Source: Cryobacterium fucosi (GTDB taxonomy: Bacteria; Actinomycetota; Actinomycetes; Actinomycetales; Microbacteriaceae). From it: a DNA stretch of 61,523 bases. The stretch spans positions 1-61,523 of the forward strand of contig NZ_SOHH01000073.1 of NCBI RefSeq assembly GCF_004403515.1. Direction: 5' to 3'. The translations under genes were made by a program, and so were the position numbers. Below, piece after piece: positions 11,060 to 33,968 of this stretch; the stretch's first letter is position 1; each line of letters opens with the position of its first letter. The notes under the pieces were generated by a model. The model did no database searches, was not told the origin of the DNA, and saw only the letters and a program-made list of their open reading frames with translations.

Positions 11060-13249
11060 GTGAGTTCCCCTGTCCGGACAACCGCCGTGTCGGGTGCCCC
11101 GACGATGGTCCACCAACTGCGTGCCGCAGGCACCAGCATCGTGCTGGATGCCCGCGGCACGGGCGTTCCCGTCGTCGTGCACTGGGGCGGCGACCTCGGG
11201 GCGCTCTCCGCTGCCGAGCTGGTCGTGGTCGCCGACTCGGCCGTACCGGCCATCCCGCCGAGCTCGGTCGACATCCCGCTCCGGCTGTCCCTTCTTCCCA
11301 CGCCGAGGGAGGGCTGGAGCGGCCGCCCCGGGCTCACCGGGTTCCGCGTCGGCACAGGCGCGGCCGCGCTCGAGTTTCGCCTCGCCGAGGTGCGTCCGTC
11401 CGGTCCGCTTGCCCTGGCCATCCTGCTGACGGATGCCGCCGCCGGCCTTGACCTTCGGACCGAACTCGAACTCTCCGTGCAGGGTGTGCTGCGCCTGCGG
11501 CACACCCTCACCAACTCCGGCGGGTCGGCCTTCGAACTCGGCTCGCTCGGGGTCACCCTGCCGGTGCCCGACCGCGCGGCGGAGCTTCTCGACTTCACGG
11601 GCCTCTGGAGCCACGAGCGCCGGCCGCAGCGCAGCATCCTCGGCCAGGGCGTCTGGAGCCGCGAGTCACGGCACGGTCGCCCCGGCCACGACGACGCCTT
11701 CCTGACCGTTGCCGGCACGCCCGGGTTCGGGTTCCGCGCCGGCGAGGTCTGGGCCACCCACCTGGCCTGGAGCGGCGACAAGCACACCTGGGCCGAGAGA
11801 AGTCCGCTGGGCCAGGCAACGCTCGGAGGCAGCGAACTCCTCGCGCCCGGCGAACTGAGCCTGGCCGCCGGGGAGATGTACACCTCCCCGTGGACCGTGG
11901 CCGTGTACTCGGCTGCCGGGCTCGACGGGCTGTCGGCCAGGCTGCACCCGTGGATCCGCTCCTGGTCCACGCTCCGTGCGCCCGGACCGGTCCCGGCCGG
12001 CCGGCCGCGGCCGGTCGTGCTCAACACCTGGGAGGCGGTCTACTTCGACCATGACCTGCCCACGCTGACCCGACTGGCCGACGTGGCGGCACGGGTCGGA
12101 GTCGAACGGTTCGTGCTCGACGACGGCTGGTTCACCGGGCGCTCCGACGAGCGGCGCGCGCTCGGCGACTGGTTCGTCGACGCGGCCGCCTGGCCGGACG
12201 GGTTGCATCCTCTGATCGACCACGTGCGCGGCGCCGGCCTCGACTTCGGCCTCTGGGTGGAACCCGAGATGGTGAGCCTCGACTCCGACCTGGCACGGCA
12301 GCATCCGGACTGGGTGCTCGGCACCGACGGCTCACCGACCTGGCGGTTCCAGCGGGTGCTCGACCTCGACAACCCGGATGCCTTCGCCTGGCTGCTCGCG
12401 CGGCTCGACGCCCTTCTCACCGAATACCCGATCGGCTACCTCAAGTGGGACCATAATCGTGACCTGCTGGCCGGCTCGGCGCACCGACAGACGGCCGCCC
12501 TCTACCGGCTGATCGACGCCGTGCGAGCCGCGCACCCCGGTGTGGAGATCGAGTCCTGCGCGTCGGGCGGCGCCCGGATCGACCTCGGCATCCTCGAACG
12601 CGTCGACCGGGTCTGGACCAGCGACACCAACGACCCGCTCGAACGGCAGCTGATCCAGCGCTACACGGGCGTTCTCGTGCCTCCGGAATACCTCGGCGGG
12701 CACCTCGGTGCGGCGACCGCGCACACCACCGGGCGCACCGCCGACCTCGGCTTCCGGCTCGCCACCGCGCTGTTCGGCAGCGCCGGCATCGAATGGGACC
12801 TCACCGAGGCGAACGAGGACGAGCTCGACACGATCGCGGACTGGGTGGCCAGGTACAAGGCGCTCCGCCCGCTCCTGCACTCCGGAACCGTCGTGCGGGC
12901 CGACGCCAGCGATCCGGCGCTCGAGCTGCACGGGGTCGTCTCGGACGACCGCTCCTCAGGGGTGTTCGCCTATGTGGCCCTCGCCGCCCCGCGCGCCGCG
13001 GTGCCCGCGCCGCTCCGTTTCCCCGGCCTCGACCCCGACCGGAGCTACCGGGTGGCGCCGCTCGCCCTGGGTTCCCCTCCGCGCACGGTGCAGGATGCCC
13101 CGCCCGGCTGGCTCGCGCCCGGCTGGCTCGCGCCCGGGGGCATCACCCTCCCCGGCGCGGTGCTTGCTCTCATCGGGCTGCCCGCTCCGCTGCTGTCCCC
13201 GGAGCAGGCCGCGCTCTACACGGTCGACGTGGTGCCGGCGCCGCAGTAG
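11060..13249 (+). CDS. GH36 alpha-galactosidase
   Basis: A 729-aa glycoside hydrolase family 36 alpha-galactosidase, cleaving terminal alpha-1,6-galactose from melibiose or raffinose-type sugars. The N-terminal beta-sandwich is followed by the catalytic barrel with VLDDGWFTGR, the nucleophile Asp464 in LKWDHNRD and the acid/base Asp522 in VWTSDTNDP, next to the ESCASGGARID substrate-binding loop. There is no signal peptide, so it works on imported sugars. GTG 11060 is used; ATG 11105 (MVHQLRAAG) would be a shorter alternative. A small in-frame duplication (PGWLAPGWLAP) lies near the C-terminus. Together with GH42 it lets the cell use both alpha- and beta-galactosides. Confidence 0.95.
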   Translation: MSSPVRTTAVSGAPTMVHQLRAAGTSIVLDARGTGVPVVVHWGGDLGALSAAELVVVADSAVPAIPPSSVDIPLRLSLLPTPREGWSGRPGLTGFRVGTGAAALEFRLAEVRPSGPLALAILLTDAAAGLDLRTELELSVQGVLRLRHTLTNSGGSAFELGSLGVTLPVPDRAAELLDFTGLWSHERRPQRSILGQGVWSRESRHGRPGHDDAFLTVAGTPGFGFRAGEVWATHLAWSGDKHTWAERSPLGQATLGGSELLAPGELSLAAGEMYTSPWTVAVYSAAGLDGLSARLHPWIRSWSTLRAPGPVPAGRPRPVVLNTWEAVYFDHDLPTLTRLADVAARVGVERFVLDDGWFTGRSDERRALGDWFVDAAAWPDGLHPLIDHVRGAGLDFGLWVEPEMVSLDSDLARQHPDWVLGTDGSPTWRFQRVLDLDNPDAFAWLLARLDALLTEYPIGYLKWDHNRDLLAGSAHRQTAALYRLIDAVRAAHPGVEIESCASGGARIDLGILERVDRVWTSDTNDPLERQLIQRYTGVLVPPEYLGGHLGAATAHTTGRTADLGFRLATALFGSAGIEWDLTEANEDELDTIADWVARYKALRPLLHSGTVVRADASDPALELHGVVSDDRSSGVFAYVALAAPRAAVPAPLRFPGLDPDRSYRVAPLALGSPPRTVQDAPPGWLAPGWLAPGGITLPGAVLALIGLPAPLLSPEQAALYTVDVVPAPQ

Positions 13250-23527: not shown

Positions 23528-23965
23528 TCATTCGAGCGAGGCCAGCGCCTTCTCATATTTCGCGGCAAGGCGCTCCCGTACGCTGACGTCCAGTTGCGCC
23601 ACCCGCCACGGCTCGAGATTGTCGGCGATGTCGGCGCGCTTCACGGCGAGGGCGATCGGGTTGGCGCGGATGCCGGCGTAGTAGTCGGCGTCGCTGACGG
23701 CATCCGTTCTGGTCAGCAGTTCGACCGCGGCGACCACGCCGCCGGGGATGCCGGCGGCCAGCAGATCGGTGGGGGAGACGTCCGTGTCTTCCAACACGTC
23801 GTGCAGCCAGGCGGTCGCCTGCCCCAACGGGTCGACGAGACGCTCGGCGACCCCACGGGGGTGGTCGATGTAGGCGGCACCGAGCTTGTCGACCTGGCCG
23901 CGGTGTGCGGCTGTGGCGATGGCCTGGACCGTGGCGACGAACGGTGCGGACGCTGTGACCGGCAT
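23528..23965 (-). CDS. HD-domain phosphohydrolase-like protein
   Basis: A 145-aa protein of the HD superfamily, similar in pattern to the hydrolase half of RelA/SpoT or to small YfbR-like proteins. Candidate metal ligands are His21 (AAHRGQVDKLG), His35 (YIDHPRGVAERL), His55-Asp56 with Glu59-Asp60 (WLHDVLEDTD) and Asp113 in KRADIADNLEP. This order matches the (p)ppGpp hydrolase MESH1-like arrangement, so a nucleotide or alarmone substrate is possible. ATG 23965 has GGGGGA about 6 nt upstream. The last codons abut the repeat array. Confidence 0.8.
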   Translation of the reverse strand: MPVTASAPFVATVQAIATAAHRGQVDKLGAAYIDHPRGVAERLVDPLGQATAWLHDVLEDTDVSPTDLLAAGIPGGVVAAVELLTRTDAVSDADYYAGIRANPIALAVKRADIADNLEPWRVAQLDVSVRERLAAKYEKALASLE

Positions 23966-24114
23966 GATGATCCCCCTGGGGCGTTGCGAACGAGCGTGGG
24001 TGAGCGGCAGCCCAGGGAAACGGCCCCGGACTGACACCTGCACCGCACACGGTAGCGCGCACCCGTGAACGAGGGAAGTCGCCTCGAGGAAAACGGGAAA
24101 GCAACCCCTTCCAT

Positions 24115-24132
24115 GCACCCCAGACTGGGGGT
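24115..24132. promoter_or_regulatory. CCCC-AGACT-GGGG palindrome upstream of the riboswitch
   Basis: ACCCCAGACTGGGGGTATTT lies about 90 bp before the riboswitch. A near copy (CCCCCAGACTAGGGGT) occurs upstream of the ice-binding protein gene at 33802-33817. It could be an operator shared by the two loci. The exact protein is unknown. Confidence 0.45.
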
Positions 24133-24214
24133 ATTTTGCTGACGCCCGTCGGGGTCGAACGTACCCCGGTCTGCTAGGTTCGAACCAGGTGATCATCCGA
24201 TCACCGGCGAGACG

Positions 24215-24300
24215 GTTCGTACGTCTTTCGCAAGGGCACACCCGTTGAGAAACGGGGTCGCAAAGGCACGGGACCTTCGGGTCAGCCGGCCTACCGAATG
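24215..24300 (+). ncRNA. Cyclic di-GMP-I (GEMM) riboswitch
   Basis: The sequence follows the GEMM-I consensus: AAGGGCACACC, a hairpin CGTT-GAGA-AACG, then GGGTCGCAAAGGCACGGGA, a short stem CC-TTCG-GG, and GTCAGCCGGCCTACCGA. The conserved GCAAAG core and the terminal GCC..TACCG element are present; the GAGA tetraloop matches the GNRA loop. It lies 370 nt upstream of the chemoreceptor of a c-di-GMP-producing operon, so c-di-GMP probably feeds back on its own synthesis. Whether it is an on or off switch cannot be read from sequence. Confidence 0.88.
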
Positions 24301-24316
24301 AATAGGGCCGAAGCAG

Positions 24317-24469
24317 ATGAGCTTTCCACTCCTGGAGACCGACGTCAGCGTCGAGTCCGTTGGTGTGACGCAGCCAGACGCCGCTCTTGCTGTGCCCGCA
24401 GCCGGCAGCCTCGATGCCCCGGCGGCCCTCACCCCACACACTCCATCAGTCCGTCGTCGACTAGGGTAA
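24317..24469 (+). CDS. Possible 50-aa leader peptide after the riboswitch
   Basis: An ATG-started frame of 50 codons begins 20 nt after the riboswitch (MSFPLLETDVSVESVGVT...). It has moderately GC-rich third positions but no strong ribosome binding site. Its stop codon falls in the loop of the hairpin at 24447-24484, so translation could influence folding. It may be a regulatory leader, a small protein, or chance. Confidence 0.3.
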   Translation: MSFPLLETDVSVESVGVTQPDAALAVPAAGSLDAPAALTPHTPSVRRRLG

Positions 24470-24484
24470 GCAGACGACGGACTG
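24447..24484 (+). terminator. Hairpin in leader, candidate riboswitch expression platform
   Basis: CAGTCCGTCGTC (24447-24458) pairs perfectly with GACGACGGACTG (24473-24484) across a 14-nt loop. No T tract follows, so factor-assisted or weak termination, or translational control, are options. Confidence 0.5.
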
Positions 24485-24530
24485 AGGGAAGTCAGGTCGG
24501 CCTTCGGGTGGCCGCACTGACGCGGAATTG

Positions 24531-24565
24531 CGATCGGGGACCGATTCGGGTTCGGTCCCCGATCG
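24531..24565 (+). terminator. Second perfect hairpin in the leader
   Basis: CGATCGGGGACCGA (24531-24544) and TCGGTCCCCGATCG (24552-24565) form a 14-bp stem with a 7-nt loop. It lies about 100 nt before the chemoreceptor start and, with the hairpin upstream, is the likely site of riboswitch-controlled transcription stop. No T run is present. Confidence 0.5.
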
Positions 24566-24669
24566 CATTCACCGCATGGCAGTGGAGGTGCCAGGAAAAT
24601 TTCTTCGCCATGCACGCTCGCAGATGCCGCTTGACACGATCTCAGCACTAGAAAGACCGGTGGCACCAC

Positions 24670-26523
24670 ATGGCCAGGAGACCAATCGGCCGACTGCGAA
24701 AACTACCGCGTAGCCTCGGCGTGCAGCTGGCCGCGGCCATGCTCGTAGTGTCGGTGCCGCTTGTCATCATCTCGACGGTCGTTCTCACCACGGAGTCTGC
24801 GGCGAGCCTGACCGCGGCGGCGGAGGACAAGAGCGTCACCGTCGCCAAGGCGGTCGGCCTGCGGCTGGAAGACTGGATCAGGGAACGTCAGGGCGACATG
24901 TCGGTCGTCGCAGCGTCGGCCGGTGACCTGGACAGCTCAGTGCTCGCGACCCGCCTGGCCAAGATCGACGAGGCATCCGGCAGCTACACCCTGATCCAGA
25001 TCACTGACGTCGACGGTAAGGTGCTCTCCTCCAGCCGCCCAGGCGTCGCCCTCGACCCGACCGGGCAGGACTGGTTCCGTTCGGCCGTCGCCGGCGAGAC
25101 CGTCTTCACCCCCTTGACCCTTCAGGGCGACCAGTTGCACTGGGTGCTCGCCCAGCCGCTGCTGGCCGACGACGGCTCGGTACGCGCCGTACTGATCGCC
25201 AACCTCGACCCGACCGCCCTGAGCAAGCTGCTCAACCGCGCCCTGGGCAAGGGCGTCGAGGTCGTCGCGGTCGACTCACTCCACCGATTGATCTACAGCG
25301 CGGAAACCATGGGCGACGCGACGGAGCAGTCCGCGCTGCTGGCCGGCGGAATGCTCACGACCATCGTCGACAGCGAACCGGTCGCACAGGCGGCCCGCAC
25401 CGGCAAGCCCGGCAGCGCCCGTTTCATTGACGATGACGGTGACGACGTCATCGGCGGCTACGACTTCGTCGAAGGCCTGAACTGGGTGCTCATAGTGAAG
25501 GAAGACGCGAGCGCGGTGCTTGCCCCCGTGGAGACCCAGGTGCAGAGGTCGATTCTCCTGGCGGCCATCGGCGTGCTCTTCGCCGTGCTCGCATCCAGCC
25601 TGATGGCCTGGAGTGCGGCCCGGCCCGTACGCAAGCTCACTGCGGTCGCCCGTCGGGTCACCCGTGGCGACCTGCTGGCGCGCGCCGTGCCCACCGGACC
25701 GACCGAGATGGTGGTGCTCGCCGACTCGCTCAACGCCATGCTCAACACCAGCCAGGAACTCATCGCCCGGCTGGAAGGCGCCGGGGTCGAGGTGAATTCC
25801 GCGGCCACCGAACTGTCGGCATCCTCCGACGAGCTCGCCGCGATCACCACCCAGCAGAGCGCGGCCGTCACCCAGGCCACCGCAACCACCGAGGAATTGG
25901 CGCGGTCATCGGTGGCGATCGCCGACACCGTCGACGATGTCGCCCGCCAGACCGCTGAAACCCGGCGCAATCTCGAACAGGCCGAGGCCGACATCCTCGT
26001 CTCGAGCGAGCGCACCCTGGCCCTGGCCAGCCGGGTGAACGACATCGAGTCCCTCCTGGTGCTGATCAACGACATCGCCGACCAGACCAACCTGCTCGCC
26101 CTCAACGCCGCGATCGAAGCGGCCAGGGCCGGCGAGCACGGCCGCGGTTTCGCGGTCGTCGCCGACGAGGTGCGGCGCCTGGCCGAACGGTCCAAGTCTA
26201 GCGCCGGTGACATTGCCGAGATCGTCAGCGCGGTGCAGCGCGAAACCAACGCGACCGTGATGGCGATGGAAAAGGGCGCCAAGCAGATGCAGCAGGGTCT
26301 GCTCCAGCTCGAAGCGGTGACGGATGCCAACGGTCAGGTCAGCCTGACCACCCAGCAGCAGCGAAGTGCCACCGCGCAGGTCGTGGAGACCATGGAACAA
26401 CTTGCCGACGCCAGCCGGCAGATCTCGATCACGGCCCGCCAGATCGCGGCCTCGGCCGGTGACCTTGCGGACCTGGCCCACAACCTCGAAGCCACCGCCG
26501 GTGCAGGCAACGGAGAGCGATGA
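24670..26523 (+). CDS. Methyl-accepting chemotaxis protein (WspA-like receptor)
   Basis: A 617-aa membrane chemoreceptor. A transmembrane helix (about 17-38) precedes an extracellular Cache-type sensor domain ([23 protein letters not shown], then [11 protein letters not shown]). A second helix (about 298-316), a HAMP domain ([20 protein letters not shown]) and a long signalling coiled coil follow. The hairpin tip that contacts CheW and CheA ([20 protein letters not shown], then [18 protein letters not shown]) is intact. There is no C-terminal CheR-tethering pentapeptide (ends GAGNGER). It leads the operon, overlaps CheW by 4 nt and has a riboswitch leader. Its role would be to sense a surface or solute cue and drive the downstream CheA. 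Confidence 0.94.
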
Positions 26524-27011
26524 CGCAAGCGCACGCGGTTCTGGTTCCCGTGGGGGAGGACCTGTTCGCCGTGTCGATCGACCGGGTGAGCCAGGTGGTC
26601 GCCGCACCATCGCTCACCCGACTGGTCACCGCGCCTTCGCACGTGCTCGGCCTGTTCAACCTGCGCGGGCAGATCGTCCCGCTGCTCGACACGGCCGCGC
26701 TTCTCGGCCTGCCCGCTGGGCAACCTCCGATGTTCGCGGTCGTGCTGCAGTCCAGGCAGGGCCTGGTCGCCCTCGCCGCGACCGCGTTTCCCTGTCGGGC
26801 CAGCCTCGGTGACCCGGTCGGTCCGTCCGACCTGCCCGGCACTGCGGGCACCTACCGGGTGAAGGAGAGCATCGTCGTGCGGCTCGACCCCGACCTTCTC
26901 CTGGCCAGGGACCGTCCGCTGCGTGCCGGCGAGAATTCCGTGTCGGTTCTGCCGCCTGTCGGAGCGATCGAGCCTGTGGGCGCCATCACCCGGTCCGGGT
27001 CGGCCGGATGA
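26520..27011 (+). CDS. CheW-domain coupling protein 1
   Basis: A 163-aa CheW-like adaptor that links the receptor to CheA. The SH3-like fold shows [15 protein letters not shown] and the characteristic [17 protein letters not shown] segment. It has a short C-terminal tail with a repeat ([11 protein letters not shown]). It overlaps the MCP stop by ATGA and the CheA start in the same way, so the three proteins are made together. It occupies the position of WspB in the Pseudomonas Wsp operon. Confidence 0.92.
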
Positions 27012-29098
27012 GCATCCTGGGCATCGACCAGATCCGTGCGCTGTTCGCCCAGGAGGCCGAGGTGCGCCTCACCGAGCTGGACCGGTTGCTGCTCCAGCTC
27101 GAGCAGCAGGGCGGTGACGAAACCCTGGTCCGGGCCATCTTCCGCGAATTGCACACGCTCAAGGGATCCGCGGCCGTCGCCGGCCTGGACGACGTGAGCC
27201 AGCTGGCGCACGAGCTCGAGGAACTCGTCGGCGGGATCCGCTCCGGCGACTTGGCGGTCACGCCCGCGATCATCGACACGCTCCTGGTCGGCGCCGACCA
27301 GCTGGGCAGCGCCATCGCCGGTGAACCGGCTGGCGTGCCCGGCACCGACGCCGGCGACGAGCCCGGCGACGAGCCGGTCGTCGCGGTCCTGGTCATCGAC
27401 GAGAGTGCGACGCCAGTGACCGCTGTCGCTCCGTCCCCACGGGTTCCGATGGGCGTGGAAACTGCCACCGCCCCCGCCCCCGAGCCCGGCGGCGTGGTGA
27501 TGGTGCCGATGGACCGGCTCGACGAACTCGTGCGCCTGATTGGGGAATCGGCATCCGCCCACCTTCGGATGGGCAGCATGCTGATGGAGAAATTCGGCGT
27601 CGATCCGACCTTGAACCCGGAATTCAACGAACTGTCGCGCACGCTCAACGAACTGCAGGAACGGGCCATGCGCACCCGGATGGTGCCGCTGTCCACCATC
27701 ACCGACAAACTCCAGCGTGCCGTGCGCGACCTGGCCCGGGCACAGGGCAAGACCATCCGCTGGGAGGTGCGCGGGGCGGACACCGAGCTGGACCGTGGCG
27801 TGCTCGTTGCGCTCTCCGACTCCCTGCTGCACCTGGTGCGGAACGCCGTCGACCACGGGATCGAACCAGACGTGGTGCGCGCCGCGGCAGGCAAACCGGT
27901 GGGCGGCACCATCCGGCTGCACGCCATGCAACTCGGCTCCGAAGTGATCGTGGCGATCACCGACGACGGTAGCGGGATCGACACCTCGCGGGTCCGGGCG
28001 CAGGCCGAAGGCCAGGGCGTCGACACGTCACGGCTGAGCGACGAAGACATCCAGCAACTGATCTTCCGGGCCGGGCTGTCGACGACGGCGTTCGTCACGG
28101 ACGTGTCGGGGCGCGGCGTCGGCCTCGACGTCGTTCGCACCACTGTGGAGGCCGCCCACGGCCGGGTCGAGGTGCGCTCGGCGACTGGCCGGGGCACCGA
28201 GTTCCGCGTCATCGTGCCGATCACCCTGGCCGTGCTCCGGTGCCTGCTGGTGGAATCCGGCGGCCAGTGCTTCGCCCTGCCATTCCACCGGGTCGTGCTC
28301 TCCCAGCGTTTCGACGAAACAGGGCAGACCAGCGCCGAAGGACGACCGGTGATCTGGGTGGAGGACCAGCCCGTTCCGGTGTCGGCGCTCGCGGGCACCC
28401 TCGGCATCTGCGGCGGCTCCCCGGACGGCCCGATCGTGGTGCTCGCCGACACCGCCCGGCGGCACGGCTTCCAGGTCGACCGGCTGGTCGGCCAGCGGGA
28501 CGTGGTGATCAAGGGGCTCAGCACCCTGCTGCCGCACCTGCCCGCGGTCGCCGGGGCCAGCGTCGAGCCCGACGGCTCGATCCTGCTCGTGCTCGACCCG
28601 CCCGGGCTGATCCAGCGGGCGCGGCAGGCGGCACGCGGCCAGGCTGCCCCCGGGCGTCCCCCCGCGGAACCGTCGAAGGCCCGGCACGCCGTCGCGTCCG
28701 CCGAACGGACTTCGGCCGGCGCATTGCAGCGCATCCTCGTCGTCGACGACGCGCTGACCATCCGGGAGCTGCAGCGCAGCATCCTGGAGCGTGCCGGTTT
28801 CGACGTGCGCGTCGCCGTCGACGGCCTGGACGCGCTGGCGAAGCTCGCCGAGGGGCCCAGTGAGCTGATCCTCACCGACATCGAGATGCCGTTGATGGAC
28901 GGCTTCGCGCTGACCGAGGCGGTGCGCGCGGCCCCGGACCTGGCCAACATTCCGGTGTTGATCCTGAGCTCGCGCTCGAGCGAGGCCGACCGGCAACGAG
29001 GGCTGGAGGCCGGCGCCGACGGCTTCATTCTCAAGAGCGGCTTCGACGAGGGAAGCCTGCTCCTCGCCGTGAACCGGCTGATCGGGGCACGCCGATGA
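27008..29098 (+). CDS. Hybrid chemotaxis histidine kinase CheA-REC (WspE-like)
   Basis: A 696-aa hybrid CheA. The Hpt domain carries His49 in ELHTLKGSAAVAG. After an acidic linker come the dimerisation helices (MVPMDRLDELVRLIGE), the kinase domain with N box (HLVRNAVDHGIE), G1 (DDGSGID) and G2 (GRGVGLDVV), a CheW-like P5 domain (VLRCLLVESGGQCFALPF), and a C-terminal receiver with acidic pair VVDD, phospho-Asp624 (LTDIEMPLMDG) and Lys in ILKSG. There is no P2 domain and no separate CheY gene in the operon. The fused receiver is diagnostic of Wsp/Frz-type rather than flagellar systems. It should phosphorylate its own receiver and the REC-GGDEF protein. Confidence 0.95.
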   Translation: MSILGIDQIRALFAQEAEVRLTELDRLLLQLEQQGGDETLVRAIFRELHTLKGSAAVAGLDDVSQLAHELEELVGGIRSGDLAVTPAIIDTLLVGADQLGSAIAGEPAGVPGTDAGDEPGDEPVVAVLVIDESATPVTAVAPSPRVPMGVETATAPAPEPGGVVMVPMDRLDELVRLIGESASAHLRMGSMLMEKFGVDPTLNPEFNELSRTLNELQERAMRTRMVPLSTITDKLQRAVRDLARAQGKTIRWEVRGADTELDRGVLVALSDSLLHLVRNAVDHGIEPDVVRAAAGKPVGGTIRLHAMQLGSEVIVAITDDGSGIDTSRVRAQAEGQGVDTSRLSDEDIQQLIFRAGLSTTAFVTDVSGRGVGLDVVRTTVEAAHGRVEVRSATGRGTEFRVIVPITLAVLRCLLVESGGQCFALPFHRVVLSQRFDETGQTSAEGRPVIWVEDQPVPVSALAGTLGICGGSPDGPIVVLADTARRHGFQVDRLVGQRDVVIKGLSTLLPHLPAVAGASVEPDGSILLVLDPPGLIQRARQAARGQAAPGRPPAEPSKARHAVASAERTSAGALQRILVVDDALTIRELQRSILERAGFDVRVAVDGLDALAKLAEGPSELILTDIEMPLMDGFALTEAVRAAPDLANIPVLILSSRSSEADRQRGLEAGADGFILKSGFDEGSLLLAVNRLIGARR

Positions 29099-30153
29099 CC
29101 GGGTCGGCAGCCGCGCCACGCTCCGGGAAATCGATCCGGGTGCTGATCATCGACGACCTGCCCACCGACCGCGCCCGCCTCGCCCGGACGCTGCAGAGCG
29201 ACGGCGACATCGTCAGCCTCGGCCAGGTCGCAACCGGGCAGGCCGCCATCGGTCTCGTCGCCCGCGAACATCCCGACGTCATCCTCCTCGGTCTCTCCAC
29301 GACCGACGGAAGCGGCCAGTCCCTGATCGAGCAGGTCATGGCGCACACGCCGACGCCGATCCTCGTGCTCTCCACCCAGATCGAGAACCGGCAATCGCCG
29401 GGCGCGGTCGACGCGCTCGTGGCCGGGGCCCTCGACGTGCTGCCGGGTCCCGTGCGGTGGACCCCCGACCTGGAGGCCGGGCTGCGGCGCACGGTGCGCC
29501 AGCTCAGCCGTGTGCAGACCATTCGCCACCCCCGGGGCGTGCTGGCCAGACCGCCCGGGGTCGTGCCGGCCCCGTCCGGCCGCACCCGCCAGACCGTGGT
29601 GGCCCTGGCCGCATCGACGGGCGGTCCGAAGGCGCTCGCCACGGTCCTGGCCGGGCTCGGCGGGCTGGCCGCTCCGGTGCTCGTGGTGCAGCACCTGCAT
29701 CAGGACTTCACCGGCGGGCTCGTGGACTGGATGACCCGGGTCTCCGCGTTGCCGGTCGAGATAGCAGTGCACGACCAGGTCGCCCGCCCCGGGCGGGTCT
29801 ACCTGGCCCCGGGCGGCCTGCACCTGCGACTGGGCGCCGGCCTTCGCCTCGAACTCGCGTCGACGCCGGTCACCATCCACCAGCCGTCCGCGAACGAACT
29901 CTTCCAGTCCGTCGCCCGGAACGCCGGGTCGGCCGGGGTCGGCGTGATCCTCACCGGGATGGGCGACGATGGCGCAGAGGGGCTGCTGGAGATGCACCGC
30001 GCCAACGGTCAGACCCTCGGCCAGGACGAGGAGTCCTGCGCGGTCTTCGGGATGCCGCGCGCGGCCTATCGCGTCGGCGCGGTCAGTGACCTGCTGTCGG
30101 TCGACCTGCTGGCGGCCGCGATCCTGCGCTGCGCGGCACGGGGGACGGCATGA
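29095..30153 (+). CDS. CheB-type methylesterase with degenerate receiver (WspF-like)
   Basis: A 352-aa protein with an N-terminal receiver and a C-terminal glutamate methylesterase. The esterase triad is complete: Ser174 (ALAASTGGPKA), His200 (VVQHLHQDF) and Asp292 (LTGMGDDGAEG). The receiver keeps the acidic pair Asp20-Asp21 (LIIDDLPTDR), but the phosphorylation site DVILLG has Gly66 where Asp is expected, and the following loop is LSTTDGSG instead of the usual xMPxMDG. Phosphorylation by CheA is therefore unlikely, so demethylation may be constitutive or controlled another way. ATG overlaps the CheA stop by 4 nt. Confidence 0.93.
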   Translation: MTGSAAAPRSGKSIRVLIIDDLPTDRARLARTLQSDGDIVSLGQVATGQAAIGLVAREHPDVILLGLSTTDGSGQSLIEQVMAHTPTPILVLSTQIENRQSPGAVDALVAGALDVLPGPVRWTPDLEAGLRRTVRQLSRVQTIRHPRGVLARPPGVVPAPSGRTRQTVVALAASTGGPKALATVLAGLGGLAAPVLVVQHLHQDFTGGLVDWMTRVSALPVEIAVHDQVARPGRVYLAPGGLHLRLGAGLRLELASTPVTIHQPSANELFQSVARNAGSAGVGVILTGMGDDGAEGLLEMHRANGQTLGQDEESCAVFGMPRAAYRVGAVSDLLSVDLLAAAILRCAARGTA

Positions 30154-31391
30154 ACGGCCGCGGACTCGCGGGCACCGGGTCCGCCGGCACGGATGCCTCG
30201 ACGCTCGTGACCGACGCCGTCGTCGACCGGGTGGCCGAGCTGCTGCGTTCGGCGGTCGGTTTGCGCGCCGAGCCGACCCTGCGCGCCCGGATGCGCCGGT
30301 GCATCCGTGACGAAATCGCCGACAACGGCACGGACGCCGAGTCGTACCTGCGCGCGCTGACGGCCGGTTCCGCGCTGCGGCAGAGCCTGCTCAACCGCAT
30401 CACGGTGCAGGAGACCGCCTTCTTCCGCCACCCGGAGCACTTCGCCCTGTTGGAGCGGGAGATCCTGCCCGCCACGCGCCGACCCCTGTCGATCTGGAGC
30501 GCCGGCTGCGCCAACGGCCAGGAGGCGTACAGCCTGGCCATGCTGCTCGAGGAGCGGTGCATCACCGGCTCGATCATCGCCACCGACATCTCCACGTCGG
30601 CTCTCGCCCGCACGGATGCCGCCCGGTACTCGACCAAGGAGGTGAGCGGCCTGACCACGGCACGCGTGGACCGCCACCTGAGCGCTGTGGGTGACGGCTG
30701 GGAGGTCACGCAGGCGTTGCGCAACCGGGTGAGCACGATGCACCACAACCTGATCGACCCGGTGCCCTCCCGGGTGCGGTCCTGCCAGATCATCTTCTGT
30801 CGCAACGTGCTGATCTACTTCTCACCCGAACATGCCCGGATTTTCCTCGACCGGGTCGCTCAGACGATGCCGGCCGCGTGGTTGTTCCTCGGCTCGTCCG
30901 AGACGATCTGGGCGATCGGCGACCGCTACGAGACCGTGCGCTTCGGCGACACCTACGCGTATCGCTCGCTGCCCGGTTCGCCTGCGGCGGTGCCGCGCTC
31001 CCTGCCGGCACCGTCACCCGAGGCGCCGTTCCGCGCGCGCGCCCGGCCCACCCCGGTTGCCGCGACGCCAGCCGACCACGACGAGGCTGCCATGATCGCC
31101 GGCTTGGCTCGCAGCGGTCAGACCGCGCTGGATGCCGGTCACCACGCCGCCGCGGTCGTCCTCTTCCGCAAATGGGCGTACCTGGCGCCGCAGGACTGCC
31201 TGGCCCACCTCCACCTCGGGCTCGCTCTCGAGGCCGCCGCCGATCCTGCCGCCGCGCTCCGCGCGTTCAGCGCGGCCCGGCGGGCCCTGGACCTGGCCGA
31301 CCCGGCCGAGGTCGAGCACGCGATCGACGGCTATTCGATCGCCGAACTCCACAAACTTCTCGACGCCAAACAGCAGGAGCCAACCCGATGA
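30150..31391 (+). CDS. CheR-type methyltransferase with TPR tail (WspC-like)
   Basis: A 413-aa chemoreceptor methyltransferase. The N-terminal helical domain contains LLNRITVQETAFFRHPEHF; the SAM domain contains IWSAGCANGQEAYSLAMLL and ATDIS, and the LIYFSPEHARIF motif follows IIFCRNV. A Pro/Ala linker joins a C-terminal TPR-like region (ALDAGHHAAAVVLFRKWAYL, CLAHLHLGLALEAA, ALRAFSAARRAL). CheR with TPRs is the form seen in WspC. It would methylate glutamates of the MCP. It overlaps both neighbours by 4 nt. Confidence 0.93.
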   Translation: MNGRGLAGTGSAGTDASTLVTDAVVDRVAELLRSAVGLRAEPTLRARMRRCIRDEIADNGTDAESYLRALTAGSALRQSLLNRITVQETAFFRHPEHFALLEREILPATRRPLSIWSAGCANGQEAYSLAMLLEERCITGSIIATDISTSALARTDAARYSTKEVSGLTTARVDRHLSAVGDGWEVTQALRNRVSTMHHNLIDPVPSRVRSCQIIFCRNVLIYFSPEHARIFLDRVAQTMPAAWLFLGSSETIWAIGDRYETVRFGDTYAYRSLPGSPAAVPRSLPAPSPEAPFRARARPTPVAATPADHDEAAMIAGLARSGQTALDAGHHAAAVVLFRKWAYLAPQDCLAHLHLGLALEAAADPAAALRAFSAARRALDLADPAEVEHAIDGYSIAELHKLLDAKQQEPTR

Positions 31392-31768
31392 CGACCATGG
31401 TGTGTTTTCGATCAGACGGGGCGTCCTACTGCCTCCCGGTCGAGGCGACGCGGGCGGTGCGCACGGCGGACGGGCTGGTCCCCGTGCCCGGATCCGGACC
31501 CGACATCGCCGGGGTGCTTCCCGGCGGTCCGCCCCTGACCGTGCTCTCCGCCCTCGGCGCCGGCGGCAGCCACGTGATCGTGGTCGAGTCGCGCGGGGCA
31601 TCCTTCGGCCTGCTCGTCGACTCCGTCTCCGGGCTGCGCCGGTTCGCCGACGACGAGGTCCGGCCCGCCCCGACCGGGCAGGACGTGGCATTCATCTGCG
31701 GGCTGGTCGACTCGGGTGGCGACCTCATCCTCGTCGCCGACCCCGAGGCCCTGGCGGCCCGGCTGTGA
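31388..31768 (+). CDS. CheW-domain coupling protein 2 (WspD-like)
   Basis: A 126-aa minimal CheW protein (MVCFRSDGASYCLPVEATRA, VPVPGSGPDIAGVLPGG, GLLVDSVSGLRRF). The ATG overlaps the CheR stop (ATGA) and its own TGA overlaps the next GTG. Two CheW genes in one operon is another Wsp trait. The usual NLRG motif is replaced by GVLPGG, so it is a divergent adaptor. Confidence 0.88.
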   Translation: MTTMVCFRSDGASYCLPVEATRAVRTADGLVPVPGSGPDIAGVLPGGPPLTVLSALGAGGSHVIVVESRGASFGLLVDSVSGLRRFADDEVRPAPTGQDVAFICGLVDSGGDLILVADPEALAARL

Positions 31769-32733
31769 TCGGCCCGGCTGTGACCGCCGCGACCGTGACC
31801 GCCGCGCCGGGCGCCACCACCGTGCTGATCACGGACGACTCGCTCGTCATCCGCGCCGTCGTGCGCTCCCACCTCGAGGCGGCCGGCTACCACGTGGTCG
31901 AGGCCGTCGACGGCCGGGCCGCAATCGCCCACTGCCGCCAGACCCCGCCCGATGTGATCCTCCTCGACATCGAGATGCCCGGACTCGACGGCTACGAGGT
32001 GCTCGAGGTGCTCAAGGCCGACCCGCTGCTGATGGACCTGCCCGTCGTCTTCCTGACCACGCTGACCGACATGGACAACGTGCTTCGCGGGCTGCGCGGC
32101 GGCGCCCACGACTATCTCAAGAAGCCGTTCGAACCGGCCGAACTGGTGGCGCGCGTCGCCGCGGCCGCCCACGTCAAGAAGCTGCAGGACCAGCTCCGCC
32201 AGCGCAACGCCGAGCTCGACCTGCTCAGCCGCACGGATGCCCTCACCGGGCTGAGCAACCGGCGCCACCTCGAATTCGTACTCGCGCACTACCACGCCGA
32301 TTCCGTGCGCCACCAGGACCCGCTCAGTGTGCTCCTGCTCGACATCGATCACTTCAAACGCGTCAACGACGGGTACGGGCACCCGGCCGGGGACGTGGTG
32401 CTCACCGAGTTCGCGAGCCGGCTCCGGGCCACGCTGCGCGAGGGGGATGTTGCCGGACGCTGGGGTGGGGAGGAGTTCCTGGTCGTGCTCCCGCGCACCG
32501 GCCTCGAGGGCGCGTTCGCGCTCGCCGAGCGCTTCCGGCTGGACGTCGCGGCGACCCCGATGCGCGCCGAGGGCGTGGAGATCGCGGTCACCGTGAGCGG
32601 CGGCTGTGCCCTGGGCCCGCTGGGCACCGTGGCCGAGTTGGTCGGCCGGGCCGACACTCTGCTCTATTCGGCGAAGGGAGCCGGCCGCAACCGGATCGCG
32701 GCCGAGGCGACCGTGCCATCCCGGACCATCTGA
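31765..32733 (+). CDS. REC-GGDEF diguanylate cyclase (WspR-like output)
   Basis: A 322-aa response regulator that makes c-di-GMP. The receiver has ITDDS and phospho-Asp68 (PDVILLDIEMPGLDG), with Thr (LTTLTD) and Lys (LKKPFEP) of the switch. The GGDEF domain has the active site GGEEF at 234-238 and an inhibitory RxxD site (REGD, 225-228) five residues before it, so product inhibition is likely. GTG 31765 overlaps the CheW stop (GTGA); GTG 31780 is an alternative. It is the expected phosphorylation target of the hybrid CheA and the last gene of the operon. Confidence 0.94.
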   Translation: MIGPAVTAATVTAAPGATTVLITDDSLVIRAVVRSHLEAAGYHVVEAVDGRAAIAHCRQTPPDVILLDIEMPGLDGYEVLEVLKADPLLMDLPVVFLTTLTDMDNVLRGLRGGAHDYLKKPFEPAELVARVAAAAHVKKLQDQLRQRNAELDLLSRTDALTGLSNRRHLEFVLAHYHADSVRHQDPLSVLLLDIDHFKRVNDGYGHPAGDVVLTEFASRLRATLREGDVAGRWGGEEFLVVLPRTGLEGAFALAERFRLDVAATPMRAEGVEIAVTVSGGCALGPLGTVAELVGRADTLLYSAKGAGRNRIAAEATVPSRTI

Positions 32734-32827: not shown

Positions 32828-33601
32828 CTACTTGGCCGGTTCGGTGACGGTGTTGCTCTGCAGGGTAACCGCGGTCTGCGAGAGCAGGCGCCCGTTGATC
32901 GAGGCTCCGGTCTTCATCGCGATGAGCGTCTTGCCGAGGATGGTTCCCTCGAAGTGCGCCGTGGTGCCGATCGAGGTGGAGCCGGCGGTCTGCCAGAACA
33001 CGTTCTTCGCCTGCACGCCGCCGGAAAGGGTGACGTTCTTCGCGGACGCCTGGTCGAGGTTGCCGGAGATCTGGAAGATGAACACGTCGTCCGGTCCGCC
33101 GGAGAGGGTGACGTCGGTGGAGATGGTCACGTCGGTGTTCCACTTGTAGAGGCCCGGCAGGAGGGTGAGCCCGCCGATCTCGCCGGCGCCCAGGTCGATG
33201 AAGTCGGGGTTGATGCGCCCGGCCGCATCACCGTAGGCGATCCCCATGTCGCCGACGACCGTGGTGAGGAAGGACGGGGCGGTGACCTCGCACGGCGGTC
33301 CGGCGGCGTCGACGGAGAAGATGGTGCCGGTCTGCACCTCCGGGCAGGTGAGGAGGATGGCCGCGCCGGTGATCGGGCTGGCGCCGACGTTTCCGTTGAC
33401 GGCCGAGGCGTAGACATCCGTCACACCCGTCTGGGAGAGGATGGCGAACGTGCCGGCCGTGCCGAGCTCGATCGGAGCCTGGGGGAGGCCGCTCGCGGAG
33501 GCCGACCCGCCGATCGCTGCGCTGCCGACCCCGGCGACGGCGACGGCCAGGAGCAGTCCGAGCTGGGCCTTGCGGGTAGTGGTGAGATTCTGGAACTTCA
33601 T
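32828..33601 (-). CDS. Secreted ice-binding protein, DUF3494 family
   Basis: A 257-aa exported protein. The signal peptide (LGLLLAVAVAGVGSAAIGGSASA) is followed by a DUF3494 beta-solenoid, with APIELGTAGTFAILSQTGVTD, GNVGASPITG, GGLTLLPGLYKWNTDVTIS, DDVFIFQISGNLDQA, KNVFWQTAGSTSIGT and FEGTILGKTLIAMKTGASINGRLL in the family order. Such proteins bind ice and inhibit recrystallisation, or help cells attach to ice. The start at 33601 has AAAGGAAA as ribosome binding site. It is convergent with the WspR-like gene; its upstream region shares a palindrome with the riboswitch region. Confidence 0.95.
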   Translation of the reverse strand: MKFQNLTTTRKAQLGLLLAVAVAGVGSAAIGGSASASGLPQAPIELGTAGTFAILSQTGVTDVYASAVNGNVGASPITGAAILLTCPEVQTGTIFSVDAAGPPCEVTAPSFLTTVVGDMGIAYGDAAGRINPDFIDLGAGEIGGLTLLPGLYKWNTDVTISTDVTLSGGPDDVFIFQISGNLDQASAKNVTLSGGVQAKNVFWQTAGSTSIGTTAHFEGTILGKTLIAMKTGASINGRLLSQTAVTLQSNTVTEPAK

Positions 33602-33968
33602 TGCGGTGGTTTCCTTTCGGCGAACCCGCACTCTGCGGATTCGGGCAGGGCCACCGTGGTGCGGTCCCCGATGCTGCACATCGGCTTCTATCGTCGGTAC
33701 CGTCCCCGGAGGGCCCCAAGTCCCACGCACACCAGGCGTCCACCACGCACGACTTCGTACGCCCCCACGGGACCAGTTCCAACGAATCGAATCTGTCTAA
33801 CCCCCAGACTAGGGGTGGTTTCTGTCTTCCCCAGGGACTGGAGGGATTAATCTGGTGAATTCCTCGGGCCGGGCGTGTCCCCGCCGCCACAGAGCGGCCG
33901 AAGGCGAAGTCACAGCCGCAGGCGCCCGGGGCTGGCCGGCCGACGGAATCGGGACAACAATGTGAGTC
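33602..33968. other. Divergent control region of the ice-binding protein gene
   Basis: This 367-bp region carries no recognisable gene. It holds the palindrome at 33802-33817 and an AT-richer stretch (33780-33850) that could contain promoters in both directions. I looked for a second c-di-GMP riboswitch and did not find the GCAAAG core. Confidence 0.5.
33802..33817. promoter_or_regulatory. CCCCCAGACTAGGGGT palindrome upstream of the ice-binding protein
   Basis: CCCCCAGACTAGGGGT nearly repeats the site at 24115-24132. Both sit upstream of transcription units on opposite ends of the chemosensory locus, so they may be bound by one regulator. Confidence 0.45.

What the first reader, a model, noticed from the sequence alone, without database searches (positions are those of the whole stretch)
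24215..32733. Wsp-like chemosensory operon behind a c-di-GMP riboswitch in an actinobacterium
The sequence shows seven consecutive genes (MCP, CheW, CheA-REC, CheB, CheR-TPR, CheW, REC-GGDEF) joined by six 4-nt ATGA/GTGA overlaps, with a GEMM-I riboswitch in the leader. Gene content equals Pseudomonas wspA-F/R, where surface contact raises c-di-GMP. The order differs (CheA and CheB precede CheR). No CheY or flagellar gene is in the window. The riboswitch would make a product-sensing loop: the last gene makes the ligand that the leader senses. I do not know of such a system described in Microbacteriaceae.
Basis: partly seen in the sequence, partly recalled or inferred. Interest (0 to 1): 0.88.

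Follow-up and report, generated by a model that had tools for sequence, protein, structure and literature searches.

The report
Chemosensory operon behind c-di-GMP riboswitch
A Cryobacterium genome carries a seven-gene sensing operon that ends in an enzyme predicted to make the messenger c-di-GMP and that lies behind an RNA element of the family that binds the same messenger, so it would likely regulate itself; several relatives have the RNA element at the same place without the operon, so how tightly the two are linked here is still open.

Summary
In detail: MCP, CheW, CheA-REC, CheB, CheR, CheW, REC-GGDEF (24670-32733), six 4-nt overlaps and an RF01051 aptamer at 24225-24298 (58.7 bits). The interpretation needs three corrections. 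(1) It is Wsp-like in parts list only: dCache receptor with 36-heptad-like arms (WspA-like references have about 14 more residues per arm), other gene order, and CheB without the phosphoacceptor Asp in 8 of 8 Cryobacterium. (2) Flagella are not absent: this genome has flagellar genes on another contig, 51 of 57 Cryobacterium genomes have flagellin, and in G344 the orthologous operon follows the flagellar cluster, with the aptamer 19 nt before the MCP start. (3) In the window the aptamer is 371 nt and three hairpins from MCP, and five genomes have it at this site without the operon, so feedback is likely in G344 and uncertain here. [quoted passage not shown] New variant of a known kind.

The parts
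24225..24298 (+). c-di-GMP-I (GEMM-I, RF01051) riboswitch aptamer
   Evidence: 58.7 bits, gathering 35, E 6.3e-9; also upstream of the operon in L004, L005, L006, L009 and in G344
24317..24469 (+). short ORF (50 aa) whose ATG lies 18 nt after the aptamer; probably leader sequence rather than a conserved peptide
   Evidence: 5 synonymous and 15 nonsynonymous codon changes against each of G239 and G335; other C-terminal frame in G342 and G300
24447..24484 (+). leader hairpin 1, 12-bp stem with the short ORF's stop codon in its loop
   Evidence: read, paired; no terminator-like T run between aptamer and MCP
24491..24521 (+). leader hairpin 2
   Evidence: read; partly paired in the centroid
24530..24566 (+). 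leader hairpin 3, 15-bp stem
   Evidence: a 45-52 nt block around it is 88-91% identical in operon-lacking G304, G306, G307 and G322
24670..26523 (+). chemoreceptor: dCache_1, HAMP, MCP signalling domain (36H-like)
   Evidence: the only MCPsignal match of the genome
26520..27011 (+). CheW
27008..29098 (+). CheA-REC hybrid kinase (Hpt, H-kinase_dim, HATPase_c, CheW, REC; no P2 family matched)
   Evidence: His 49 in HTLKGS
29095..30153 (+). CheB methylesterase with a receiver domain that lacks the phosphoacceptor Asp
   Evidence: Gly, Arg or Ser in 8 of 8 Cryobacterium; Asp kept in the G417 orthologue
30150..31391 (+). CheR methyltransferase with TPR-like C-terminal tail (below Pfam threshold)
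31388..31768 (+). second CheW
31765..32733 (+). REC-GGDEF diguanylate cyclase; GGEEF active site, REGD (RxxD) inhibitory site, receiver Asp present

Best explanation
A seven-gene chemosensory operon of Cryobacterium, ending in a receiver-GGDEF protein and preceded by a c-di-GMP-I aptamer, likely turns a signal read by one dCache chemoreceptor into c-di-GMP and would adjust its own expression through that aptamer. Shown: gene content, overlapping genes, aptamer, cyclase motifs, and that the genome assembly holds no other CheW or MCP match. Inferred from family knowledge: receptor-CheW-CheA array, phosphotransfer from CheA to the receiver of the cyclase, c-di-GMP as the output (no CheY in the operon). 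Inferred and specific to this clade: methylation feedback runs without phosphorylation control of CheB, because its receiver lacks the acceptor Asp. Predicted: ligand binding holds the aptamer's 3' strand, frees the Shine-Dalgarno sequence and turns translation ON (strongest evidence in G344, where the aptamer abuts the MCP start and follows the flagellar cluster). In the window clade the aptamer sits 371 nt upstream and its effect on the operon would have to act through read-through of the hairpin-rich leader; this step is the weakest.
For: Domain content and motifs. Aptamer in front of the operon in 6 of the 8 Cryobacterium genomes with CheW over cut-off, of 57 examined; a seventh, G318, has a decayed aptamer ending at the MCP ATG (alignment score 88; shuffles 38.9, sd 4.6, max 54.5). 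In G344 the aptamer ends 19 nt before the MCP start; its 3' strand pairs with the SD region at -17.0 kcal/mol (z -3.43, the lowest of 46 scored) and mean SD unpaired probability rises from 0.26 to 0.69 when that strand is withheld. 48 of 49 genus aptamers have ATG/GTG 12-23 nt downstream; of the 46 scored, 32 are at 18-19 nt, the geometry of translational control (no chance level was computed). 12 of 49 directly begin GGDEF or GGDEF-EAL genes (one of the 12, at C76, is a 31-bit match below the gathering score). One MCP and three CheW matches in the genome, all here.
Against: Aptamer and leader occur at the same site without the operon in G300, G304, G306, G307 and G322, G322 with a CheW remnant, so the aptamer has or had another role. 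In the window the SD effect is small (0.27 to 0.34), and over all 46 scored aptamers the mean z is -0.42, with 22 of 46 duplexes better than the shuffle mean, so the ON prediction is not general. The window leader has a 371-nt gap with three hairpins. G318 has no RF01051 match and G327 none in the 1.3 kb upstream that its contig holds. The orthologous operon of G417 has no aptamer in the stretch fetched. No ligand binding, expression or enzyme assay exists.
Confidence: 0.55

Rival explanations
1. The aptamer belongs to a separate short leader unit ended by the hairpins, and the chemosensory operon is only its downstream neighbour in the window clade, with its own promoter; there is no feedback loop here.
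For: Aptamer and leader are present at the same chromosomal site in five genomes without the operon; in G300 the window is colinear up to 24622 and again from 32730. The stop codon of the short ORF lies in the loop of hairpin 1.
Against: The short ORF shows no coding constraint, so no separate product is evident. No sigma-70-like promoter was found at 23980-24720, a weak test in this lineage, and no U-tract terminator between aptamer and MCP. In G344 and, decayed, in G318 the aptamer is directly at the MCP start. G322 lost an operon it once had, and losses may be recent.
Confidence: 0.4
2. It is a true Wsp orthologue that senses surfaces as in Pseudomonas.
For: CheA-REC, two CheW, CheR with TPR-like tail, CheB, REC-GGDEF. 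PDB entry 3bre (WspR by recall; listed as probable two-component response regulator) is among the best matches of REC-GGDEF, 164.7 bits in one stretch; PleD chains reach 235 bits by two stretches, the better one 156.5. In the smaller tree the clade groups with WspE at support 47/51.
Against: dCache instead of the 4HB domain of WspA (PMC8846402 passages); arms without the about 14 extra residues of three WspA-like references; different order; CheB without Asp; the larger tree puts the clade apart from WspE, weakly (89/59 and 86/84).
Confidence: 0.12
3. It is the flagellar chemotaxis system of these bacteria, steering swimming.
For: In G344 it follows the flagellar cluster; all 8 operon-bearing genomes have flagellin; the MCP is 36H-like, as E. 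coli Tar.
Against: 43 of 49 Cryobacterium genomes without CheW over cut-off also have flagellin, so flagella do not need it; no CheY in the operon or in the flagellar stretches examined (the whole genome was not searched for CheY); FliM of G344 as read starts without the CheY-binding peptide known from other FliM (motif recalled); CheA has REC and no P2 match.
Confidence: 0.15
4. The riboswitch is an OFF switch, so the loop is homeostatic (negative feedback).
For: Riboswitches typically serve as feedback sensors of the product of the regulated pathway (PMC6366702 passage); the window fold gives little SD release.
Against: G344 geometry favours release of the SD on ligand binding.
Confidence: 0.3

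Closest known systems
Pseudomonas Wsp system (ACF class; WspA-F, WspR)
   Same: Receptor, two CheW, CheA-REC, CheB, CheR with TPR-like tail and a REC-GGDEF output
   Different: dCache 36H-like receptor versus 4HB and longer arms in WspA; order MCP-CheW-CheA-CheB-CheR-CheW-DGC versus wspA-B-C-D-E-F-R; CheB acceptor Asp missing in Cryobacterium; aptamer in front; no shown link to surfaces
Actinobacterial CheA-REC / REC-GGDEF operon (G417; CheA also in Pseudarthrobacter, Amycolatopsis, Mycobacteriales and Frankiales MAGs)
   Same: Named CheA relatives 63-73% identical over 99-100% of the length; G417 has MCP, CheW, CheA, CheB, CheR and REC-GGDEF in the same order
   Different: No c-di-GMP-I aptamer in the G417 stretch; CheB Asp present in G417; its second CheW was not detected; the operons of the named relatives were not seen
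c-di-GMP-I riboswitch upstream of a chemoreceptor gene (B. anthracis, as stated in PMC6366702)
   Same: c-di-GMP riboswitch ahead of an MCP gene (passage)
   Different: The passage speaks of a putative MCP only; here a full operon whose last gene would make the ligand
c-di-GMP-I riboswitches in general
   Same: RF01051 fold and placement in 5' leaders
   Different: [quoted passage not shown] in Cryobacterium 12 of 49 begin GGDEF or GGDEF-EAL genes

Membership tests
c-di-GMP-I riboswitch (RF01051) | Covariance-model score above the gathering threshold | tested here: met
   58.7 bits against 35
c-di-GMP-I riboswitch (RF01051) | Binds c-di-GMP and changes expression of the downstream gene | not testable with these tools
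   Needs binding and reporter assays
Wsp system | Receptor, two CheW, CheA-REC, CheR-TPR, CheB, REC-GGDEF in one cluster | tested here: met
   but the TPR tail is below Pfam threshold
Wsp system | Gene order wspA-B-C-D-E-F-R | tested here: not met
   CheA and CheB precede CheR here; Wsp-like references L282 and L283 show MCP-CheR-CheA-CheB-REC-GGDEF (unannotated records, named Wsp-like by my reading; their CheW not detected)
Wsp system | WspA-type receptor (4HB periplasmic domain, longer signalling arms) | tested here: not met
   dCache_1; aligns with Tar with single-residue gaps only in the signalling arms, while three WspA-like references have about 14 extra residues per arm
Wsp system | CheB (WspF) receiver with phosphoacceptor Asp | tested here: not met
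   Asp absent in 8 of 8 Cryobacterium, present in references L281 and L283
Wsp system | CheA in one clade with WspE | tested here: inconclusive
   Apart in the 46-row tree, joined at 47/51 in the 30-row tree
Wsp system | Activated by surface contact | not testable with these tools
   Needs mutants and c-di-GMP measurement
ACF class of chemosensory systems | CheA with REC and without P2; response regulator other than CheY | tested here: met
   Pfam architecture; PMC10782961 passages say most CheY-like domains of CheA are in F3, F5, ACF and Tfp, so this alone does not single out ACF
ACF class of chemosensory systems | Match to class-specific models | not tested
   No class models at hand
Flagellar chemotaxis (F classes) | Flagellar genes beside the operon | tested here: inconclusive
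   Yes in G344; none seen in the window; FlhA, FlhF and CsrA of G344 have no match in L004-L009
Flagellar chemotaxis (F classes) | CheY output | tested here: inconclusive
   No separate CheY in the window, in the G344 flagellar stretch or in the C90 stretches fetched; the whole genome was not searched for CheY

The most novel reading that the evidence does not exclude
Cryobacterium has wired chemosensing, flagella and c-di-GMP into one self-amplifying circuit: a c-di-GMP-ON translational riboswitch, placed between the flagellar cluster and a chemosensory module whose only output enzyme makes c-di-GMP, lets the module be translated only once c-di-GMP has begun to rise, and further copies of the same riboswitch gate other GGDEF and GGDEF-EAL genes across the genus, giving a bistable swim-or-settle switch built from RNA sensors in genomes such as this one without a detected PilZ receptor.
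Probability: 0.25. Interest if true: 0.8.

Novelty: new variant of a known kind. Interest (0 to 1): 0.6.

Why it matters
If right, it is a natural case where the RNA that senses a second messenger controls the multi-protein machine that makes it, and it can be tested in relatives with named genome records. It also offers a counterexample to the statement that c-di-GMP riboswitches rarely control c-di-GMP enzymes (12 of 49 aptamers in the genus begin such genes), natural relatives that have the riboswitch without the operon, and a clade whose CheB lacks its phosphorylation site, which bears on how adaptation works without phospho-CheB.

Tried and rejected
Rejected: 'no flagella' (flagellin matches and a flagellar cluster, named by eye, on contig C90 of this genome). 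Rejected as a conserved peptide: the short ORF in the leader; the related 52-aa ORF ahead of an alpha-amylase-family gene shows third-position bias in three of six comparisons (those with the window genome), and a database search gave 7 relatives, one with a name, from Cryobacterium. Not general: SD sequestration by the aptamer's 3' strand (mean z -0.42 over the 46 scored of 49; dropped before scoring: one without a start codon at 12-23 nt, two without an SD pattern). Inconclusive: CheA kinship to WspE. Nothing found: U-tract terminators or sigma-70-like promoters between aptamer and MCP; PilZ in the genome; a proximal aptamer relic in the window or in L008 (scores within the range of the shuffles). 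The FlhF reading of G344 has no Pfam match; fliM, fliG, fliI and others were named by eye. The family search for CheA (2 of 299 genomes) scored at most 3 candidates per genome, the class search (40 of 394 at E 1e-80) 2. CheW below cut-off in G305, G319 and G347 was not counted as an operon.
Full report
Observation. The window holds seven consecutive genes with six 4-nt overlaps (ATGA five times, GTGA once) whose Pfam content is dCache_1-HAMP-MCPsignal, CheW, Hpt-H-kinase_dim-HATPase_c-CheW-REC, REC-CheB_methylest, CheR, CheW and REC-GGDEF. RF01051 matches 24225-24298 with 58.7 bits (threshold 35) and is the only Rfam hit over threshold in the window.

Host. The closest named orthologues are from Cryobacterium, and genome G239, 'same genus' as the window, carries an operon contig of the same length as one of them (135066 bases). 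The assembly is 3.44 Mb in 122 contigs, 99.99% complete. It has one MCPsignal match, three CheW matches, all in this operon, 15 GGDEF matches, no PilZ match, two flagellin-type matches in a flagellar cluster on contig C90 (other genes named by eye), and a type IV pilus locus whose PilB has an MshEN domain, next to a PAS-GGDEF-EAL gene. So 'no flagellar gene' holds for the window but not for the genome.

Distribution. In 57 Cryobacterium genomes, CheW over cut-off occurs in 8 (three more have matches below cut-off), flagellin in 51, RF01051 in 20. All 8 operon genomes have flagellin, and so do 43 of the 49 others. The aptamer lies in front of MCP in 6 of the 8 (G000, G239, G335, G342, G325, G344). 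G318 (C. psychrotolerans, L007) has no RF01051 match but a decayed copy that ends at the MCP ATG: alignment score 88 against shuffles of 38.9 (sd 4.6, maximum 54.5). G327 (L008) shows none in the 1.3 kb its contig holds. In the family a CheA relative at E 1e-20 was found in 2 of 299 genomes, both Cryobacterium, with at most 3 candidates scored per genome, and RF01051 in 15 of 299. Outside the family, CheA proteins 63-73% identical over nearly the whole length are named from Pseudarthrobacter, Amycolatopsis and Mycobacteriales or Frankiales MAGs (best 120 of 6056 listed). Of 394 genomes of the class, 40 match at E 1e-80 (2 candidates scored per genome), but besides the window's own only G417 is close (72%; the others 38-44%); it has MCP, CheW, CheA, CheB, CheR and REC-GGDEF in this order, its second CheW undetected, and no aptamer in the stretch fetched. 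The operon is thus an actinobacterial system; I saw the aptamer in front only in Cryobacterium.

Two arrangements. In G344, a two-contig genome, the operon follows the flagellar cluster: flagellin, FliF, MotA, FlhA and CsrA by Pfam, others named by eye. 44 nt after csrA comes the aptamer, and 19 nt after the aptamer the MCP start codon. In the window the operon lies between an HD-domain-like gene (my reading of its translation) and an ice-binding protein gene, and the aptamer is 371 nt from MCP. The leader between them is conserved, folds better than 100 of 100 shuffles (z -5.0, aptamer included) and holds three hairpins without U tracts. Its short ORF shows 5 synonymous and 15 nonsynonymous codon changes against each of two relatives and no third-position bias, so I read it as leader sequence.

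The aptamer without the operon. At the window's site, G300, G304, G306, G307 and G322 have the aptamer and neighbouring genes, and no CheW match in the genome. Against G300 the window is colinear from 23931 to 24622 and again from 32730, so almost exactly the operon is missing. G322 keeps a CheW1 remnant (134 nt at 86% identity to G325), so there the operon was lost; for the other four I cannot tell loss from absence. The aptamer therefore does not need the operon; it has another role, or the losses are recent. This is the main evidence against a tight feedback loop in the window.

The aptamer's usual context. I read the 3' flanks of all 49 aptamers that one search lists for the genus. 48 of 49 have ATG or GTG 12-23 nt downstream; 46 could be scored, 32 of them at 18-19 nt (no chance level computed). 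Twelve of the 49 begin a gene with GGDEF (six) or GGDEF-EAL (six) domains by Pfam (L136 and L137; ten); one of these twelve aptamers (G000 C76:11568) scores 31 bits, below the gathering score. [quoted passage not shown] anthracis (PMC6366702, passages). In this genome six aptamers were found, five over threshold: besides the window's, one begins a GGDEF gene, one a GGDEF-EAL gene, one precedes WxL-type surface protein genes and a GGDEF-EAL gene, one a small ORF and an alpha-amylase-family gene, one a GDSL-type protein gene.

Sign of the switch. Pairing of the aptamer's 3' strand with the SD region would hide the ribosome site without ligand. For G344 this duplex is -17.0 kcal/mol (z -3.43 against shuffles, the lowest of 46) and withholding that strand raises SD accessibility from 0.26 to 0.69; for the window it is -13.0, z -2.4, 0.27 to 0.34; over all 46 the mean z is -0.42, 22 of 46 are better than the shuffle mean, and accessibility goes up in 16 and down in 6. 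I predict ON for G344 and make no firm call for the window.

Comparison with Wsp. Same: parts list, CheA-REC, TPR-like CheR tail (weak), REC-GGDEF with GGEEF, REGD and receiver motifs. Different: order (Wsp-like references L282 and L283, unannotated and named by my reading); dCache instead of 4HB (PMC8846402 passages); signalling arms that align with E. coli Tar with single-residue gaps only, while three WspA-like references carry about 14 more residues per arm; a CheB receiver with Gly, Arg or Ser in place of the phosphoacceptor Asp in 8 of 8 Cryobacterium, though G417 keeps it. CheA trees put the actinobacterial set in its own clade (100/100) with the link to WspE unresolved. CheA with REC and no P2 fits F3, F5, ACF or Tfp rather than most flagellar classes (PMC10782961 passages). 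CheR-TPR is described as an ACF feature (PMC3447774 passages). It works like an ACF/Wsp-type c-di-GMP system; it is not shown to be Wsp.

Print. Searches for Cryobacterium with c-di-GMP (0 papers), Microbacteriaceae with c-di-GMP and riboswitch, Wsp with chemosensory, actinobacteria and GGDEF (4 papers), c-di-GMP riboswitch with actinobacteria or with cheA (of which 10 listed) showed, by listing only, no description of this system; the library holds open-licence papers only.

Verdict. Real, conserved and unusual, but less simple than reported. Interest 0.6: a new variant of a known kind, with a direct test available in G344-type leaders.

Noticed in passing
window 32828-33730 (-): Ice-binding-like protein gene (PF11999, 206.5 bits) convergent with the operon; beside it in L004, L005 and L006 and at the operon-lacking site of G300 and G322.
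   Followed up: partly
L134 reverse strand 702-860 (G000:C70:18319-), also L139, L222, L226: 52-aa ORF (MSFPF..ES..WFG..PAVA..RKLR) 19 nt after an aptamer and ahead of an alpha-amylase-family gene; third-position bias in the comparisons with this genome suggests a real small protein; 7 database relatives, one named, from Cryobacterium.
   Followed up: partly
L138 6130-10994: Aptamer (reported as RF03167, c-di-GMP-I-GGC) ahead of WxL and WxL-interacting surface protein genes and a GGDEF-EAL gene.
   Followed up: partly
L204 (G338:C49:14184- and flagellin 12656-13069 -): A c-di-GMP-I aptamer lies 1.1 kb upstream of flagellin in one Cryobacterium genome.
   Followed up: no
L084, L089, L091, L096, L097, L106: In other genomes of the family, c-di-GMP-I aptamers directly precede TetR-type (three), Flp pilin (two) and MarR-type (one) genes.
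   Followed up: partly
L007 342-426: A second, 5'-truncated aptamer relic followed by an ATG ORF of the same MSFP type, 1.4 kb upstream of the C. psychrotolerans MCP gene.
   Followed up: partly
G000:C78:69888-74218 (L150): Type IV pilus locus with PilB carrying an MshEN domain, next to a PAS-GGDEF-EAL gene: a possible protein receptor for c-di-GMP.
   Followed up: partly
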